64,000 nt of DNA from a virus: positions 62,001 through 126,000 of the IMG/VR virus record IMGVR_UViG_3300023174_000050; one strand, written 5' to 3'. Under the pieces are notes generated by a model. That model worked only from the letters and a program-made list of their open reading frames with translations. It had not been told where the DNA came from and ran no database searches. The position numbers were made by a program, and so were the translations under genes. Shown here piece by piece: positions 4,765 through 11,515 of this stretch; position 1 is the first letter of the stretch, and each line of letters opens with the position of its first letter.

Positions 4765-5703
4765 ATGGCATTCACATCACTATCAGATCTTAGAAAATCC
4801 CGCGGAGGATTTGACTCTTTAATGAAAGAGGTCGAAAAGATCGCAAATCCCCAAGCAGAATCTCGAGGCGCTGATGATCGCTTCTGGTCTCCAGAAGTAG
4901 ATAAAGCAGGCAACGGTTATGCTGTTATTCGATTTTTACCTGCACCTAAAGGCGAAGACTTGCCTTGGGTTAGAGTTTGGAATCATGGATTTCAAGGTCC
5001 AGGCGGTAAATGGTACATCGAAAATTCTTTAACTTCTATAGGTAAAGCAGATCCAGTTTCTGAACACAACACAGAACTATGGAACTCTGGCTCGGAAGCA
5101 AATAAGGAAATTGCTCGTAAACAAAAGCGCAAGCTAAGTTATACAACTAATATTTTAATTGTTAAAGACCCAGCTCATCCAGAGAATGAAGGTAAAGTAT
5201 TTCTTTATAAATTTGGTAAGAAGATCTTCGATAAAATTAAAGACATGGCTGAGCCACAATTCCAAGATGAAAAACCAATTAATGTGTTTGATTTTTGGGA
5301 AGGCGCAAACTTCAAGCTAAAGATTCGTCAGGTTGAAGGTTATCGTAATTATGACAAATCTGAATTTGAGGCTGCTAGCTCCATTTCAGAAAAAGATGAA
5401 GATATTGAAGCTATCTGGAGCAAGCAACATTCTTTGACACAGTTCTTGGATGAGAAACATTTTAAATCTTATGACGAATTGAAGAAAAAATTCGAAATGG
5501 TTATGGGTTTAAGTGGCAATTCTGTACCAGGTAAGCGCGCGGAAGAAATTGATCTAGATAATCAATTACCTACATTAAAAGCAGTTAATTCTACGCCTAT
5601 GCCAAATACAGAAAAGGCGCCTGTTAAAGCGCCAGCTAAAGAAGTAGATTTTGATGATGACGATGAGTCTTTATCCTACTTTGCCAAATTAGCTGAAGAT
5701 TAA
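4765..5703 (+). CDS. gp32: Single-stranded DNA-binding protein gp32
   Basis: Coats ssDNA in replication, recombination and repair. The 312-aa protein shows the gp32 order: a basic N-terminal cooperativity segment ('SLSDLRKSRGGFDSLMKEV'), the OB-fold core ('YAVIRFLPAPKGEDLPWVRV', 'LIVKDPAHPENEGKVFLYKF', 'FWEGANFKLKIRQVEGYRNY'), and an acidic C-terminal tail ('VDFDDDDESLSYFAKLAED') that in T4 binds partner proteins. There is no cysteine anywhere in the protein, so the zinc site of T4 gp32 is absent, as in other marine T4-like gp32 proteins. It is the last gene before a strong terminator and has its own promoter at 4609. Confidence 0.95.
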   Translation: MAFTSLSDLRKSRGGFDSLMKEVEKIANPQAESRGADDRFWSPEVDKAGNGYAVIRFLPAPKGEDLPWVRVWNHGFQGPGGKWYIENSLTSIGKADPVSEHNTELWNSGSEANKEIARKQKRKLSYTTNILIVKDPAHPENEGKVFLYKFGKKIFDKIKDMAEPQFQDEKPINVFDFWEGANFKLKIRQVEGYRNYDKSEFEAASSISEKDEDIEAIWSKQHSLTQFLDEKHFKSYDELKKKFEMVMGLSGNSVPGKRAEEIDLDNQLPTLKAVNSTPMPNTEKAPVKAPAKEVDFDDDDESLSYFAKLAED

Positions 5704-5723
5704 AAATCTTTAGCTCAATTAGA

Positions 5724-5746
5724 CCCCGCCTAGTGCGGGGTTTTTT
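5724..5746 (+). terminator. Rho-independent terminator after gp32
   Basis: CCCCGC (5724-5729), a five-base loop, GCGGGG (5735-5740), then six T. It ends the gp32 transcript and separates it from the convergent tail operon that stops at 5751. On the minus strand the same stem is followed by TCTAATT, so it may also weakly stop that operon. Confidence 0.9.
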
Positions 5747-5750
5747 AATG

Positions 5751-7661
5751 TTATGCAAATATCCTACCGTTATATCTAAAGAAATCATTTATAGCAGTAT
5801 TGGTATTAACAGGCGAACCTGATACAAAAGACATTCCCGAACCAGACCCGGAACTTGCCACAGTAGTATTATTATTTACTATAATCGGTGCAGCTGAAAT
5901 AGCAGTATTTTCTGTTAAAGCAGCATTTTCATTATCAGCAGTTTTTAGAATAGATGCCATTGGCATTGTATTTAAATTTTGAGAAACTTTTTCAGATTTT
6001 GGTTTTATATTTTCTGATTTTGATTCTTCTTTTTTATTTAAATTATAGTTTGGATTTCTTTTAATAAAATCTTGATTTTTTTCCAACCAATCTAATATTT
6101 TACTATTTTTAGATTCTCCTAAATAATTAGGGTCCTTAATATTAATGTCCTTATAACGTTGTTCTGCCCAGTCAGTTATTTCTTTTGGTAGTTTTTCTGC
6201 TCTTTGTACTCTTTGTACTCTTTTATACTCTTCTTCTTCGCCTGCAGCTGCCCCACCTCGACCTCCGCGCGGTTTTTGATTATCTAATTTTTCTTTATTT
6301 GGGACTTCTGTATTAATAGGTTTTCCGGAATTATTCAACGCATCAAGTTTAGTTGTCATTTCTTTTTCGAAAGACACAGAAGATTGTCCTTTTTTATTCA
6401 AGTAATCTAGATATACTGCTTCTACATTCTTTTGCACATTAGGTGTTAATACATTGCCCTTATCATCAGCAAGCGAACCATCGGCTTGTTTTTTATAATC
6501 TTTTCCGTTATAAGGAACAACCTCACCCTCAGGAACTTCTGCATATTTTTGTTTATTAGTTTCTAATCTACCTTCCGCTTGTCTACTGCCCTTTTGTTTT
6601 GCTGCTGCTTCTTTTTCAGCTTTTTCTTTTTTACGCATTCTATCTAAATCTTCTGGATCATCCATTGTAGACAATAATACAGGGGCAGCTAGTAATCCCA
6701 ATGAAGCACCTAATACTCTAGATGCAGCACCCGCTAAAGGTAAAGCGCCCGCCGCAGGAGCTGTACTTGATGGTACACGTTTTGGTGTTGGTTGATTTTT
6801 ATTGCCAGGGAGTTGTACTGGCGAAGTTCCAGGTACTCCTACGGGCATACGAGAATTTGCTTGATTATTATTTAATATTTCTGATAAAGTTTCAACCGCA
6901 TATTCTATATTATCTGTAAATGTTTTTCCTAATTTATCTAGCGGAGGGATTAATCTAGAACTTACTTCTAACCCAATAGATTTTGAGAATTTTACTATAT
7001 CCAAAGGCTCATTATTGTTAACTGTCTTTGTATTTAAAGGAGTTCTTTTATTTGGATTCTCAGAAGCAGGTTTTTCATTTGTTTTAACATCATTATCAGA
7101 ATCATTTGATGTTTTAATTATATTAATATCATCTTGTATTAAAGAAACACTAGTTAATGTTTTATCAGATAATGTTTTTAGGGATTTAAGATTTTCTGTT
7201 AGTTGTTCCTGATACTTATTTGTAACAACCATAGACTCCAGTATATTTTTTATTATATCCCTGTCATCGGTATTTTTAGATTTTTTATCTTTAGCTTTAT
7301 CATTCTTTGTATCGACCGGTTTAGTCGCTTCAGACATTTTTACTGTGTTTGGTTTTTCATTGCTTGTTTGGCTTGCAAAATATTCTCGAATATCACCCAT
7401 CGCTTTGCCAAATACTTCTGCGGAGTAATCTTTAAATTTTTCCAGATAATCATCAGAACTTTTTTTATTCCGTTCGACTCTAGGACTTGGAGTTTGTTTT
7501 TTACTTACCTTCTCATCATTTCTTCGTTGTCTGGTTATTTGATTGGTTAGACTCTGTAAAACTTTAGTTTGATATGATAACGTTTCGCCCTGTTGGTGCA
7601 AGGTTTCGAGTATCAGTCTTTCACTAGCTGACATAGCTTGAGGATTTGTCGGTAAGCTCAT
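5751..7661 (-). CDS. Virion structural protein, tape-measure candidate
   Basis: A 636-aa protein last in the baseplate-hub operon, after gp26 and the gp51-like frame. The first 50 residues are helical ('ERLILETLHQQGETLSYQTK' region), then Lys/Asp/Ser-rich low-complexity sequence, a coiled-coil-like stretch ('LKSLKTLSDKTLTSVSLIQDD'), a hydrophobic Ala/Leu-rich segment near residues 295-330 ('ASRVLGASLGLLAAPVLLS'), and a Gly/Ser-rich C-terminus. Size (T4 gp29 is 590 aa), position and the hydrophobic helix fit a tape measure, but no direct similarity to gp29 can be claimed. The start overlaps the upstream frame's stop (ATGA), so translation is probably coupled. Confidence 0.5.
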   Translation of the reverse strand: MSLPTNPQAMSASERLILETLHQQGETLSYQTKVLQSLTNQITRQRRNDEKVSKKQTPSPRVERNKKSSDDYLEKFKDYSAEVFGKAMGDIREYFASQTSNEKPNTVKMSEATKPVDTKNDKAKDKKSKNTDDRDIIKNILESMVVTNKYQEQLTENLKSLKTLSDKTLTSVSLIQDDINIIKTSNDSDNDVKTNEKPASENPNKRTPLNTKTVNNNEPLDIVKFSKSIGLEVSSRLIPPLDKLGKTFTDNIEYAVETLSEILNNNQANSRMPVGVPGTSPVQLPGNKNQPTPKRVPSSTAPAAGALPLAGAASRVLGASLGLLAAPVLLSTMDDPEDLDRMRKKEKAEKEAAAKQKGSRQAEGRLETNKQKYAEVPEGEVVPYNGKDYKKQADGSLADDKGNVLTPNVQKNVEAVYLDYLNKKGQSSVSFEKEMTTKLDALNNSGKPINTEVPNKEKLDNQKPRGGRGGAAAGEEEEYKRVQRVQRAEKLPKEITDWAEQRYKDINIKDPNYLGESKNSKILDWLEKNQDFIKRNPNYNLNKKEESKSENIKPKSEKVSQNLNTMPMASILKTADNENAALTENTAISAAPIIVNNNTTVASSGSGSGMSFVSGSPVNTNTAINDFFRYNGRIFA

Positions 7662-7861
7662 TCCTGGTTATTCCTTATTTGTCTTTGTTTCTTTCTTTCA
7701 TTTTCTTCATTTATATGATTAATAAGCATTGCCACATAAACATCTCTTTCCCATGGAATCATATTTTCTATTTCTGATAAAGAATAATTATGATTTTTTA
7801 CTAATGAAAAATTTAATTTAAAAAAATTATGAAGCCCCTCATGGGAAAGGGTTATACGAAA
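7658..7861 (-). CDS. gp51-like frame, likely -1 frameshift extension of gp26
   Basis: An open frame running from the gp26 stop region to TGA at 7658-7660. It has no ATG, GTG or TTG before residue Met at 7760-7762, yet the part before that Met is protein-like: 'LSHEGLHNFFKLNFSLVKNH' and then 'YSLSEIENMIPWERDVYVAM'. 'MIPWERDVYVAMLINHI' matches the short conserved protein after gp26 in marine T4-like phages, in the position of T4 gene 51. The frame is -1 relative to gp26, and a slippery A_AAT_TTT heptamer lies at the junction, so the likely product is a gp26 fusion with a tail of about 67 residues. A separate protein from a non-ATG start is the alternative. Confidence 0.6.
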   Translation of the reverse strand, partial: FRITLSHEGLHNFFKLNFSLVKNHNYSLSEIENMIPWERDVYVAMLINHINEENERKKQRQIRNNQE

Positions 7862-8544
7862 AAATTTTGTAGACCTTCCAAATGCATTTCATTATGTTCT
7901 CCGCATACTTCGCAATCTTTTTCTATATGCTGAACTAATTTTGGCATTGTTAAAAAGAAATTTTCTATAAGTTCAAATTGACTTTTAGAAAAAGAATTTA
8001 CAAATTCCGACAATTCTTCTTTAGTATATTCTTCATATATAGCATCTTCAGTATAAATAGATTTTATACAAGAACTTAAAAGATCTACAATTTTATCAGA
8101 TTTAAAATTTTGGTAAATATTAATCATTTCTTCAAATTTTGGATATCTCATTTCGACAATAATTTTATCAGTAATACTAATTTTTGTACTGTGTGCTGGA
8201 TCTTTTTCTACAGCAGCCTTTGTCAAATCTAATTCAAAAGGAATCTTATTATCACAACTATTGCAATCCAATGTTAATTCTACTACTTCAGAAATAGATC
8301 TAGCTCGCAAATTTAAGAATATATATTCTATATCAAAATTGGATAATGTATTCATTTTTAATTTATTGAATGTGCATGCATCAACTAACTCTGTTACAAT
8401 ACGATTAACCTCATCTGCACCTGATTCTAAAGTAGTTAATAATACTTTATATTCTTTAACCAAAAAAGGCCTAAATGTTATTTTTTCGTCGGTTGATGGT
8501 AAAATCAATTCATAAGTCGGTGTTTCTAATATAGGTAAAGTCAT
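7852..8544 (-). CDS. gp26: Baseplate hub subunit gp26
   Basis: A 230-aa protein of the T4 gp26 baseplate family, acting in hub assembly. Family features include the opening 'LPILETPTYELILPSTDEKI', 'TFRPFLVKEYKVLL' and 'YIFLNLRARSISEVVEL'. Two Cys pairs, 'LDCNSCDNKI' (around residue 105) and 'DCEVCGEHNEMH' (near 210), look like a zinc site. It ends 'LEGLQNFFV', and the next frame repeats 'HEGLHNFF', which supports a continuous evolutionary relation between the two frames. The gene follows gp54 with an 11-base gap in the minus operon. A -1 shift near its stop would make a longer form of about 295 aa. Confidence 0.85.
   Translation of the reverse strand: MTLPILETPTYELILPSTDEKITFRPFLVKEYKVLLTTLESGADEVNRIVTELVDACTFNKLKMNTLSNFDIEYIFLNLRARSISEVVELTLDCNSCDNKIPFELDLTKAAVEKDPAHSTKISITDKIIVEMRYPKFEEMINIYQNFKSDKIVDLLSSCIKSIYTEDAIYEEYTKEELSEFVNSFSKSQFELIENFFLTMPKLVQHIEKDCEVCGEHNEMHLEGLQNFFV
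7861..7867 (-). promoter_or_regulatory. Candidate -1 ribosomal frameshift site in gp26
   Basis: Read on the minus strand in the gp26 frame, codons are CAA AAT TTT TTC GTA TAA. The heptamer A_AAT_TTT fits X_XXY_YYZ exactly. Nine bases further on, CCCT (7851-7848) can pair with AGGG (7839-7836), a weak stem. A -1 slip enters the gp51-like frame. Confidence 0.55.
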
Positions 8545-8555
8545 TTTCTAATTCC

Positions 8556-9272
8556 TTAGTTTGGAGTAAATATAAAACCATCAGTTTCAGGATCATATTT
8601 TGATTTAAGTGATGTATTATACCAATCATCTAAATATGATCCTTGAGATTTTCCTGATTTGATACCGAATTCTCCCCGAGGGACAATTTTAGGTTTTGGA
8701 TCAACTGGTGCATGAGGTATACGGTTTGTCAGATCGTGTATTGGAATCCAACGTCTATATGCAAACGTTACGCTTAATTTATGTACTTGATTTTGAGAAC
8801 TTTGATTTAAATCTAATAAAGATGTACTTCTTGGAAATGCATCTTCTAAAAATATTCCATATGTAAAATTATTTCTTTCATCAAGTTGTTCTATCAAAAT
8901 TCTATTGGAGATATATTCCTCTTGTCGATACGCAAAATATTGTATTGGATCAATAATTTTTCCCATCCATGCATCAAAAAATGCTTTTACCTTCATTTCT
9001 CTATCTAGGTTAAAAGTCATTGTCATGCCTTCTCCGCCATAATCGACATTGAATGGTCTTTGATAGTTTGGACCTGTTATCCTTTGTTGTCTAACACCTA
9101 TAATTCGTGCGGGAAAATTTGCAGATTCACAATAAAGACTTAGTCGTTGTCCATGTGTTCTAAAATCCATATATGGTGCAAGGCTAAGAGGAGGCGAAAT
9201 AGTTACCTTAAATCTATTTGGTTTAGCTACACCTTCTTTTTTTACTGTTGCAATAAATTCTTTTAGTGACAT
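8556..9272 (-). CDS. gp54: Baseplate tail-tube initiator gp54
   Basis: A 238-aa protein with the tail-tube fold signature: 'KPNRFKVTISPP' near the N-terminus, 'LYCESANFPARIIG' and 'MTMTFNLDREMKVKAFFDAW', and 'VHKLSVTFAYRRW' as the final strands. In T4, gp54 sits on the baseplate hub cap and starts polymerisation of gp19, to which it is related. The C-terminal 60 residues (Pro-rich, 'PHAPVDPKPKIVPRGEFG') extend beyond the tube fold and may contact gp48. It lies between the gp2-position gene and gp26 in the minus operon, six bases after its upstream neighbour. Confidence 0.8.
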   Translation of the reverse strand: MSLKEFIATVKKEGVAKPNRFKVTISPPLSLAPYMDFRTHGQRLSLYCESANFPARIIGVRQQRITGPNYQRPFNVDYGGEGMTMTFNLDREMKVKAFFDAWMGKIIDPIQYFAYRQEEYISNRILIEQLDERNNFTYGIFLEDAFPRSTSLLDLNQSSQNQVHKLSVTFAYRRWIPIHDLTNRIPHAPVDPKPKIVPRGEFGIKSGKSQGSYLDDWYNTSLKSKYDPETDGFIFTPN

Positions 9273-9278
9273 TTGTTA

Positions 9279-9863
9279 TTACCTGTACTTTAGTTTGGTG
9301 TCTCGCCAAATTTTTTCTTTTGTCGGTTGACTATTACCTGCGGATTTAAATCTTTCAACGGGTAACATTGCTGCGGTTACCCAATCATTAAAATTTATTT
9401 TTAAAAATCTAGATTGTAAATGATGATTTAAATAATGTTTAACACATGCAGTTGCGGGTGCATATCTAGATGAACTATTTAATATTTGCCATGATATTTG
9501 TATTCTCGATTCTTCAGTTATTCTTTTATCTAAAGTTAATTTACTTAATTCACCCAATAATTTAAACCTGGCTAGGTATGGCAAATAATGTAGGTTAATA
9601 CCTAAAAACCCATCCGGTACTGTATTAAACGGCAATACTAAGGGCACAGTATCATAATAGGGCAAAGTCTTTTTATGTTTCGGATCATACATAAAAAGAT
9701 ACATTTCTCCAGGATTTATCCTAGACGTTAATTTTTCATTTCTAAGTAATTGAGTACCTGTTACATTTTTCCCTAGATTTTTCACCTGTTCTCTATACCA
9801 CTGGTATGATTTTTGCGTATCTCCCGCTTTCATATCAATGGTTTGAAATATACTATCCGCCAT
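9279..9863 (-). CDS. Conserved T4-like virion protein (gp2 position)
   Basis: A 194-aa protein with conserved-looking core 'MYLFMYDPKHKKTLPYYDTV' followed by 'GFLGINLHYLPYLARFKLLG', found in marine T4-like phages next to gp4. In T4 the neighbour of gene 4 is gene 2 (DNA end protector), so by position it could be the gp2 equivalent, or another packaging/tail component. There are no membrane segments or catalytic motifs. Its start overlaps the gp4 stop by 11 bases, so both are made together. Function is not certain from the sequence. Confidence 0.5.
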   Translation of the reverse strand: MADSIFQTIDMKAGDTQKSYQWYREQVKNLGKNVTGTQLLRNEKLTSRINPGEMYLFMYDPKHKKTLPYYDTVPLVLPFNTVPDGFLGINLHYLPYLARFKLLGELSKLTLDKRITEESRIQISWQILNSSSRYAPATACVKHYLNHHLQSRFLKINFNDWVTAAMLPVERFKSAGNSQPTKEKIWRDTKLKYR

Positions 9864-10311
9864 TTATAAGTCCTAAATCTTTTTCTGTCAATACCATAAA
9901 TTTCATGTTCCTATCCTGACAAAATTCAAATGCTGCTTTCCATTTGGCTTCATTTACTCCATACTGAAATACCTCATCTATAAATTTTTTAGTTTTTCGT
10001 TCAGGTATGGATGGAGGTTTTGTAAATCTTTCAGGTTTTATTTCTACTAAGTATTTTTGAATTCCGCCGTTTTTATCTTTTATCTTAATATAAAAATCTA
10101 CAAAATATCTATGAACTTTTTTATCCAAAGGTGAGATATAGGGAACAATAACGGTCTCAGATCCCCATTCTTGCACCGAAATATTTTGATCGCACCATTT
10201 CATAAATCGCAATTCCCACAAGGAACGATATACAATATTTCCCACGTCTCCTTTATATTTTGAAGGATTCTTGGTTCTAAACTTGCCCTTATAGGTTTTG
10301 GTATACAACAT
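9853..10311 (-). CDS. gp4: Head completion nuclease gp4
   Basis: Acts on packaged DNA ends or the neck at head completion. The 152-aa protein has a TnsA-like PD-(D/E)XK nuclease core: 'SLWELRFMKWCD' (Glu), 'HRYFVDFYIKIK' (Asp), 'QKYLVEIKPERF' (E-x-K). Length equals T4 gp4 (about 150 aa), and 'MLYTKTYKGKFRTKNPSKYK' is the family start. It is the first gene of the minus operon, 27 bases downstream of a perfect late promoter box on that strand. It overlaps the next gene by 11 bases. Confidence 0.85.
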   Translation of the reverse strand: MLYTKTYKGKFRTKNPSKYKGDVGNIVYRSLWELRFMKWCDQNISVQEWGSETVIVPYISPLDKKVHRYFVDFYIKIKDKNGGIQKYLVEIKPERFTKPPSIPERKTKKFIDEVFQYGVNEAKWKAAFEFCQDRNMKFMVLTEKDLGLINGG

Positions 10312-10315
10312 CTAT

Positions 10316-10323
10316 TATAAATA
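10316..10323 (+). promoter_or_regulatory. Late promoter TATAAATA before gp48
   Basis: An exact T4 late -10 box in the 43-bp gap between gp4 and gp48, 31 bases before the gp48 ATG. It would be read by gp55-programmed polymerase and drive the rightward baseplate genes. It faces the minus-strand late box at 10339-10346. Confidence 0.75.
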
Positions 10324-10338
10324 ATTATGTTCCAACAA

Positions 10339-10346
10339 TATTTATA
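10339..10346 (-). promoter_or_regulatory. Late promoter TATAAATA before gp4
   Basis: The minus strand reads TATAAATA here, 27 bases before the gp4 start. It would drive the leftward tail operon. Predicted start points of this and the plus-strand promoter at 10316 nearly coincide. Confidence 0.75.
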
Positions 10347-10354
10347 AAGAAAAT

Positions 10355-11515
10355 ATGTCAACTACAAGTAAACCGCTGGGTCTTCCTGAGCAATTAAATA
10401 GAGCATCTGTTGAATATAGAAATCAGGATCAAGATAGAGGTTATAGAATTGGCACGTATGAATATCCTGAGGATTTAAGAAACCGCCCGGATTTACAGCA
10501 TTATGTTGCATTTTATATAAATGTGCGAGATAAATCCACACGGGGAAAAAATAAGAATCGTAATGACTATTTTTCTGGAGATGAGGAAGCAGGAAGAATA
10601 GACACCTTGAGAAATAAAGGGGCTCCGTTATCAATAAACAAATTAGAGTCTGGATTAGCAGATGTACTATCGGTAGCAAAAACAGGGGCAGTTGCTGCAG
10701 CATCGTATAACGTTTTCAAAGGATTAAATACGAGATTAAAAAATCCAAGAGATGCAATAATAGGCGGACTCGGCGCAGGAGCATTAACTTTAGGGGCAAT
10801 AGAAGGAGGAGAATCTTTATTAGAATTTATGAGAGGTGGCGGTCCGCTTCCGGCATTTACCCCAGGCAATACTTCAAGACTAAAAGATGTAATAACACTA
10901 CATATATCAGAAAAACCTGTAGTTAAATATCAAACAAATTATACTGATAGAGAACTAGGGACGCTTGCAGGATTACTTGTTCAAGGGTCTGCACAAAATA
11001 CTTATGCGCAAGCGTCAAAAAATCCAGAGTATCAAGCAGCATTACTTGCAAGCCTTGCAAAGATACCCACATTAAAATCTAAAGGAGGATTGATTTCAGA
11101 TTTACTTGAATTAAAATCTCGAACAAAAACAAATCCTTTTAGAGAAGTTTTATTTGAATCTGTAGATTATAGAAGTTTTAATTTTAGTTATAGATTTTTT
11201 CCAAAGAATGAACGCGAAACTAATAAAGTAAAAAACATTATAGAGTTGTTTAAAATCAATATGCTTCCTGAAATAACCTCAGAAAAATTATTTTATATCT
11301 ATCCATCAGAATTTGACATTGAATATTTTTATAAAGATTCGCCAAACCCATATTTACATAAATTTGCAAGATGTGCTTTAGTTAATATGGAAGTGGATTA
11401 TGGCGGAGACCAATTTGTCACTTTTCAAGATGGTTCCCCTGTAGAAATAGGATTAACGCTAACCTTTAGAGAATTAGAACAACTAACATCTGAAAGGGCG
11501 AAGAATGGCTACTAA
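10355..11515 (+). CDS. gp48: Baseplate tail-tube cap gp48
   Basis: A 386-aa baseplate protein on which the tail tube is built. The C-terminal half carries the family pattern: 'FESVDYRSFNFSYRFFPKNE', then 'LFYIYPSEFDIEYFY', 'HKFARCALVNMEVDYGGDQF' and 'GLTLTFRELEQLT'. The middle, around residues 110-165, is Gly/Ala-rich ('AIIGGLGAGALTLGAIEGG'), resembling a glycine-zipper insertion between the two halves. T4 gp48 is 364 aa, so the size is normal. First gene of the rightward structural operon, with a late promoter 31 bases upstream; its end overlaps gp53 by 11 bases. Confidence 0.8.
   Translation: MSTTSKPLGLPEQLNRASVEYRNQDQDRGYRIGTYEYPEDLRNRPDLQHYVAFYINVRDKSTRGKNKNRNDYFSGDEEAGRIDTLRNKGAPLSINKLESGLADVLSVAKTGAVAAASYNVFKGLNTRLKNPRDAIIGGLGAGALTLGAIEGGESLLEFMRGGGPLPAFTPGNTSRLKDVITLHISEKPVVKYQTNYTDRELGTLAGLLVQGSAQNTYAQASKNPEYQAALLASLAKIPTLKSKGGLISDLLELKSRTKTNPFREVLFESVDYRSFNFSYRFFPKNERETNKVKNIIELFKINMLPEITSEKLFYIYPSEFDIEYFYKDSPNPYLHKFARCALVNMEVDYGGDQFVTFQDGSPVEIGLTLTFRELEQLTSERAKNGY

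What the first reader, a model, noticed from the sequence alone, without database searches (positions are those of the whole stretch)
7658..8544. Likely programmed -1 frameshift joining gp26 to a gp51-like frame
The heptamer A_AAT_TTT (7867-7861, minus strand) is in the gp26 frame three codons before its stop. A -1 slip enters a frame of about 67 codons that has no early start codon but encodes a conserved-looking protein in the gene 51 position. The two frames even share an 'EGLxNFF' segment. Other tailed phages make tail assembly chaperones (lambda G/GT) this way. I know of no described gp26-gp51 shift in T4-like phages.
Basis: partly seen in the sequence, partly recalled or inferred. Interest (0 to 1): 0.78.

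Follow-up and report, generated by a model that had tools for sequence, protein, structure and literature searches.

The report
Frameshift making long tail-assembly chaperone
In this aquatic T4-like phage the ribosome almost certainly slips back one base near the end of gene 26, making a second, longer protein that ends in a gp51-like domain, the lambda G/GT trick for tail building; the signal is strikingly conserved, but frameshifting of this kind in T4-like phages has already been published.

Summary
On the minus strand gene 26 (8544-7852, PF12322) is overlapped by a -1 frame, open to 7658 and without a start codon before its conserved core, that encodes a gp51-like domain (phrog_634, E 2.5e-27). 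Relatives make a programmed -1 frameshift very likely. In 402 of 403 related loci the gp51-like frame is -1 to gp26, and all 217 distinct junctions carry T_TTT_TTN in frame. A Shine-Dalgarno-like stretch lies about 9 nt upstream, selected at codon level. A hairpin follows in many relatives; the window's own is weak. Half the relatives have no start codon in the second frame, and no candidate start has a Shine-Dalgarno. T4's separate gp51 aligns across the junction of the fused profile. Most likely function: short and long tail assembly chaperones, as in lambda G/GT. The novelty claim fails: Vladimirov, Gautam and Davidson (Virology 2022) identified tail assembly chaperones of T4-like phages, and later papers cite poly-T slippery sites in them. 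This is a new member of a known kind. No shift product was measured.

The parts
7852..8544 (-). gene 26-like ORF, 230 aa: short form, TAC-N
   Evidence: PF12322 T4_baseplate E 5.9e-58; phrog_150 baseplate hub E 1.8e-61
7658..7888 (-). -1 frame encoding the gp51-like C-terminal domain (TAC-C), no own start codon before the conserved core; stop overlaps the next gene's ATG
   Evidence: phrog_634 baseplate hub assembly catalyst E 2.5e-27; stop-to-stop ORF; start scan
7858..7864 (-). slippery heptamer T_TTT_TTC (conserved)
   Evidence: T_TTT_TTN in 217/217 distinct junctions; background 43/51,262 codons; first Phe codon TTT in 216/216
   Evidence: present in 38/217 junctions
7874..7879 (-). GGAAGG, Shine-Dalgarno-like stretch 9 nt upstream of the heptamer (putative stimulator)
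   Evidence: mean anti-SD pairing energy near -6.4 against background 0.3 +/- 1.1 over 217 junctions; GAG and GGG codons enriched there
7836..7851 (-). weak 5-bp hairpin 6 nt downstream of the heptamer (putative stimulator)
   Evidence: -7.1 kcal/mol, z -1.11 for the window itself; downstream structure strong in the family as a whole, mean z -1.78
7661..8544 (-). predicted long product (TAC-NC), 295 aa, read with a -1 shift at 7864-7858: ...LEGLQNFF|RITLSHEGLHNFF...
   Evidence: reading; family profile of such fusions aligns over the junction with T4 gp51
8556..9272 (-). upstream neighbour, tail tube family protein
   Evidence: phrog_45 tail tube E 9.2e-30
5751..7661 (-). downstream neighbour, 636 aa, in the tape-measure position (no significant family match)
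   Evidence: best tail match phrog_4498 tape measure E 0.57, not significant; a nearby downstream ORF is annotated putative tape measure in HTVC008M

Best explanation
Ribosomes translating gene 26 normally stop at 7854-7852 and make the 230-aa short protein. A fraction slip back one base on U_UUU_UUC just before the stop, helped by a Shine-Dalgarno-like sequence about 9 nt upstream and perhaps by a downstream hairpin, and read on in the -1 frame to make a 295-aa protein whose last 66 residues are the gp51-like domain. The two products most likely act as TAC-N and TAC-NC, the tail assembly chaperones that coat and deliver the tape measure protein during tail assembly. Shown here: the frames, the conserved site, codon-level selection, missing starts, and protein-level conservation of the shifted frame right after the slip. 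Inferred: that the shift occurs, its rate, and the chaperone role.
For: Frame relation -1 in 402/403 loci. In-frame T_TTT_TTN in 217/217 distinct junctions although the preceding residue varies (S, N, D, A, always ending in T) and the second Phe can be Leu. First slip Phe is TTT 216/216, while other conserved Phe columns use TTC in 5-59% of Phe codons; the second is TTC in 172/197 against 27% background. SD-like pairing peaks just upstream, with GAG in 138 of 185 Glu codons against 27% background and GGG in 63 of 216 against 11%. Downstream structure over all 217: mean z -1.78 against about 0 elsewhere; covarying pair UA/AU/GC in the P-SSM2-like group. No ATG/GTG/TTG before the core in 110/217; none of 141 candidate starts has an SD. 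Residues right after the slip, before any possible start, are conserved with synonymous changes, e.g. His 213/217 as CAT/CAC. T4 gp51 aligns over profile positions 23-280 of the fusion, across the junction. Published precedent.
Against: No translation product, ribosome profile or peptide was measured. The window's own hairpin is weak (z -1.11) and its clade shows no compensatory changes. About 43% of junctions have an ATG within eight codons after the slip, so separate or coupled initiation in those phages is not excluded. Two more distant relatives (SH19, D507) keep a TAC-C-like -1 frame but lack the T6 run.
Confidence: 0.93

Rival explanations
1. The gp51-like frame is a separate gene, started by reinitiation after the gp26 stop or at a non-canonical start codon (ATA, ATT).
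For: Many cyanophage records annotate gp51 as its own CDS with an ATG a few bases after the gp26 stop; an ATG within eight codons after the slip is present in 94/217.
Against: 110/217 have no start codon, including the window; no candidate has an SD; the ATG position alternates with Leu codons (M 87, L 123), as expected of an ordinary residue; codons before it are conserved; it does not explain invariant T_TTT_TTN.
Confidence: 0.04
2. RNA polymerase slips on the T run (transcriptional slippage), giving a mixed mRNA population.
For: The site is a homopolymer run, and any base change in it would disturb slippage too.
Against: Six T are short for transcriptional slippage (own knowledge: usually 8-9 or more); the codon phase of the run, the SD-like stretch at ribosomal spacing and the hairpins fit ribosomes better.
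Confidence: 0.02
3. Sequencing error or decayed gene: the two frames were one ORF.
For: A single-base change in this run does occur between records, e.g. IME-SM1 against Mendera.
Against: Same frame relation in 402/403 independent contigs and in isolate genomes, with both frames under constraint.
Confidence: 0.01

Closest known systems
TAC genes of T4-like phages (Vladimirov, Gautam, Davidson 2022, Virology 566:9-15)
   Same: Same genes (26 and 51 homologues), short and long forms; citing papers state poly-T slippery sequences in TAC-N genes of T4-like phages and separate short and long genes in some.
   Different: The paper is not held, so whether this aquatic clade, the SD-like element or the hairpins were described there is unknown. 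From memory its abstract says frameshifting is conserved in several T4-like groups, while T4 itself uses separate genes 26 and 51.
Lambda G/GT (-1 frameshift tail assembly chaperones)
   Same: -1 shift near the end of the short ORF, short C-terminal extension, position between tail tube and presumed tape measure genes.
   Different: No sequence similarity tested; different slippery site (lambda GGGAAAG, own knowledge).
T4 gp26 and gp51
   Same: Both are homologous to the fusion profile; T4 gp51 spans the junction.
   Different: In T4 and AnYang the two are separate genes on opposite strands, and gp51 is full length.
E. coli dnaX -1 frameshift signal
   Same: SD-like element upstream of a homopolymeric heptamer and a hairpin downstream (comparison from own knowledge).
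   Different: Unrelated gene; the window's hairpin is much weaker.

Membership tests
Tail assembly chaperone pair TAC-N/TAC-NC made by -1 frameshift | second ORF in the -1 frame overlapping the 3' end of the first | tested here: met
   402/403 loci; window
Tail assembly chaperone pair TAC-N/TAC-NC made by -1 frameshift | conserved slippery heptamer in the overlap | tested here: met
   217/217 T_TTT_TTN
Tail assembly chaperone pair TAC-N/TAC-NC made by -1 frameshift | located between tail tube and tape measure genes | tested here: inconclusive
   tail tube family upstream; downstream 636-aa ORF has no significant tape measure match
Tail assembly chaperone pair TAC-N/TAC-NC made by -1 frameshift | TAC-N fold like solved tail assembly chaperones | tested here: inconclusive
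   model pLDDT 87.9; HK97 chaperone 2ob9 appears only at E 1.3, prob 0.14-0.16
Tail assembly chaperone pair TAC-N/TAC-NC made by -1 frameshift | long product made at a fixed ratio and binding tape measure protein | not testable with these tools
   needs experiment
T4 gp26/gp51 family | homology of both domains to T4 gp26 and gp51 | tested here: met
   PF12322; phrog_634; T4 gp26 and gp51 match the fusion profile
Programmed -1 frameshift with stimulators | upstream SD-like element | tested here: met
Programmed -1 frameshift with stimulators | downstream RNA structure | tested here: inconclusive
   family as a whole yes; window's own hairpin weak, no covariation in its clade

The most novel reading that the evidence does not exclude
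T4-like phages outside the T4 branch share a three-part frameshift signal, with an SD-like codon pair (Glu-Gly as GAG GGN), an invariant T_TTT_TTN and a downstream hairpin that differs between clades, and the T4 branch replaced it by a full-length gp51 gene; the composite signal itself may not have been described.
Probability: 0.35. Interest if true: 0.42.

Novelty: new member of a known kind. Interest (0 to 1): 0.33.

Why it matters
Many cyanophage and other T4-like records annotate gp51 as a truncated separate gene or leave it out; it should be read as a frameshift extension of gp26. The clear signal gives a ready test system for tail assembly chaperone ratios in abundant aquatic phages, and supports reading T4 gp51 as the long chaperone form.

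Tried and rejected
A_AAT_TTT as the sole slip site: clade-specific. The shared EGLxNFF segment as a meaningful repeat: not conserved. A -2 or +1 shift in Menderavirus, suggested by IME-SM1: the Mendera record has T_TTT_TTC and a normal -1 frame, and the IME-SM1 record is one T shorter. Covariation in the window's own clade: none found. Sequence search of gp26 against PDB: nothing significant. Fold search: the HK97 chaperone appears only as an insignificant hit. Similarity of the downstream ORF to the HTVC008M tape measure: none by BLASTP. Rfam: no match in the window. The Vladimirov paper could not be read.

Full report
What is there. The window lies in a 190,131-base virus record of IMG/VR. 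On the minus strand, gene 26 (8544-7852, 230 aa) matches PF12322 and phrog_150. A second frame, -1 to it, is open from 7888 to 7658 and matches phrog_634, the gp51 family, at E 2.5e-27; it also matches the end of the gp26 profile phrog_150 (positions 230-276), which hints that some family members are already fused. The second frame has no ATG, GTG or TTG before the Met inside ENMIPWE. Its stop overlaps the ATG of the next gene.

Comparison. Six scans of IMG/VR plus named phage records gave 403 loci with both domains. The gp51-like frame is -1 to gp26 in 402; in the exception, L148, gp26 itself is broken. After removing junctions that are at least 92% alike, 217 remained (the window is represented by its 97% relative L081). 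Every one carries T_TTT_TTN in the gp26 frame, usually one codon before the stop: 173 TTC, 25 TTT, 16 TTA, 3 TTG. Elsewhere in gp26 this pattern occurs at 43 of 51,262 codon positions. The residue before it varies (Ser, Asn, Asp, Ala) but its codon always ends in T. Its first Phe is TTT in 216 of 216 aligned genes, unlike other conserved Phe columns, and the second is mostly TTC although TTT is the usual codon. The selection is therefore on the nucleotides, not the residues. A shift at either heptamer gives the same protein.

Stimulators. The Leu-Glu-Gly codons upstream show codon-level bias: Glu is GAG in 138 of 185 against 27% background, and Gly is GGG in 63 of 216 against 11%. Pairing with the anti-SD reaches about -6.4 kcal/mol there against 0.3 +/- 1.1 elsewhere. 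The spacing to the heptamer is 8-10 nt in most; in the window it is GGAAGG, 9 nt away. Downstream of the heptamer the RNA is more structured than shuffled sequence over all 217 junctions, with mean z -1.78, while other positions are near 0. In the P-SSM2-like group a 10-bp hairpin covaries at one pair, UA, AU and GC (some members were chosen for pairing). In the unselected P-SSM2 relatives only two cells changed on both sides. In the window's clade the hairpin is weak and shows no double changes. I count the hairpin as likely in the family and unproven in this phage.

Starts. 110 of 217 have no start codon at all ahead of the conserved core. Of 141 candidate starts none has an SD. The ATG that annotators use sits at a position that is Met in 87 and Leu in 123, so it looks like an ordinary residue. 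The codons between the slip and that position encode a conserved peptide, FFRIxLSH, with synonymous variation, which makes sense only if the frame is entered from gp26. S-CAM1 and S-CAM4 records leave the domain unannotated.

T4. In T4 and in the Dhakavirus AnYang, genes 26 and 51 are separate and on opposite strands. T4 gp51 (249 aa) aligns with the profile of the fusions from position 23 to 280 of 297, across the junction; the gp51 proteins of AnYang and Lazarus do the same. T4 gp51 is thus, by homology, the long form as a gene of its own. The T4 tail review lists gp26 and gp51 as hub assembly chaperones, with gp51 absent from the virion (PMC3004832).

Known or new. [quoted passage not shown] The paper is not held. 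PRFect (PMC10885494) cites it for separate short and long genes in some T4-like phages, and PMC12846349 cites it for poly-T slippery sequences in TAC-N genes of T4-like phages. From memory its abstract says frameshifting is conserved in several T4-like groups. The finding is thus a new member of a known kind. What may go beyond that paper, and could not be checked, is the universal T_TTT_TTN over 217 junctions, the SD-like codons and the clade-specific hairpins.

Limits. Nothing here measures translation. The tape-measure identity of the next gene and the chaperone fold of gp26 were not confirmed. Ackermannviridae phage SH19 and Vibrio phage D507 have a TAC-C-like -1 frame with ATT TTC or CTT TTC in place of the T6 run, so the signal differs in those lineages.

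Noticed in passing
L169 3210-3240 (IME-SM1) and L420 around 1050-1062 (Mendera): The IME-SM1 record has five T where Mendera has six at the slippery run, so IME-SM1 gp26 is annotated as a 280-aa protein; probably a sequencing error or a variant at the shift site.
   Followed up: yes
L168 3241-3402 and L167 3223-3399: Ackermannviridae phage SH19 and Vibrio phage D507 have a gp51-like -1 frame after gp26, unannotated in SH19 and at most partly covered by a short hypothetical ORF in D507, without the T6 run; the slip site there differs (ATT TTC, CTT TTC).
   Followed up: partly
L414 1225-1410 and L416 1213-1392: S-CAM1 and S-CAM4 GenBank records leave the gp51-like domain unannotated between gp26 and the next gene.
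   Followed up: yes
window 5751-7661 minus: The 636-aa ORF in the tape-measure position matches no family significantly; its length is close to that of T4 gp29 (590 aa).
   Followed up: partly
window 4765-11515: Neighbouring T4-like core genes: single-strand DNA binding protein (plus), tail tube family protein, DNA end protector, head closure (minus), tail tube cap (plus).
   Followed up: partly
L148 1488-2190: One contig in which gp26 changes frame internally and the gp51-like match falls in the same frame as its gp26 piece; looks like an assembly error.
   Followed up: no
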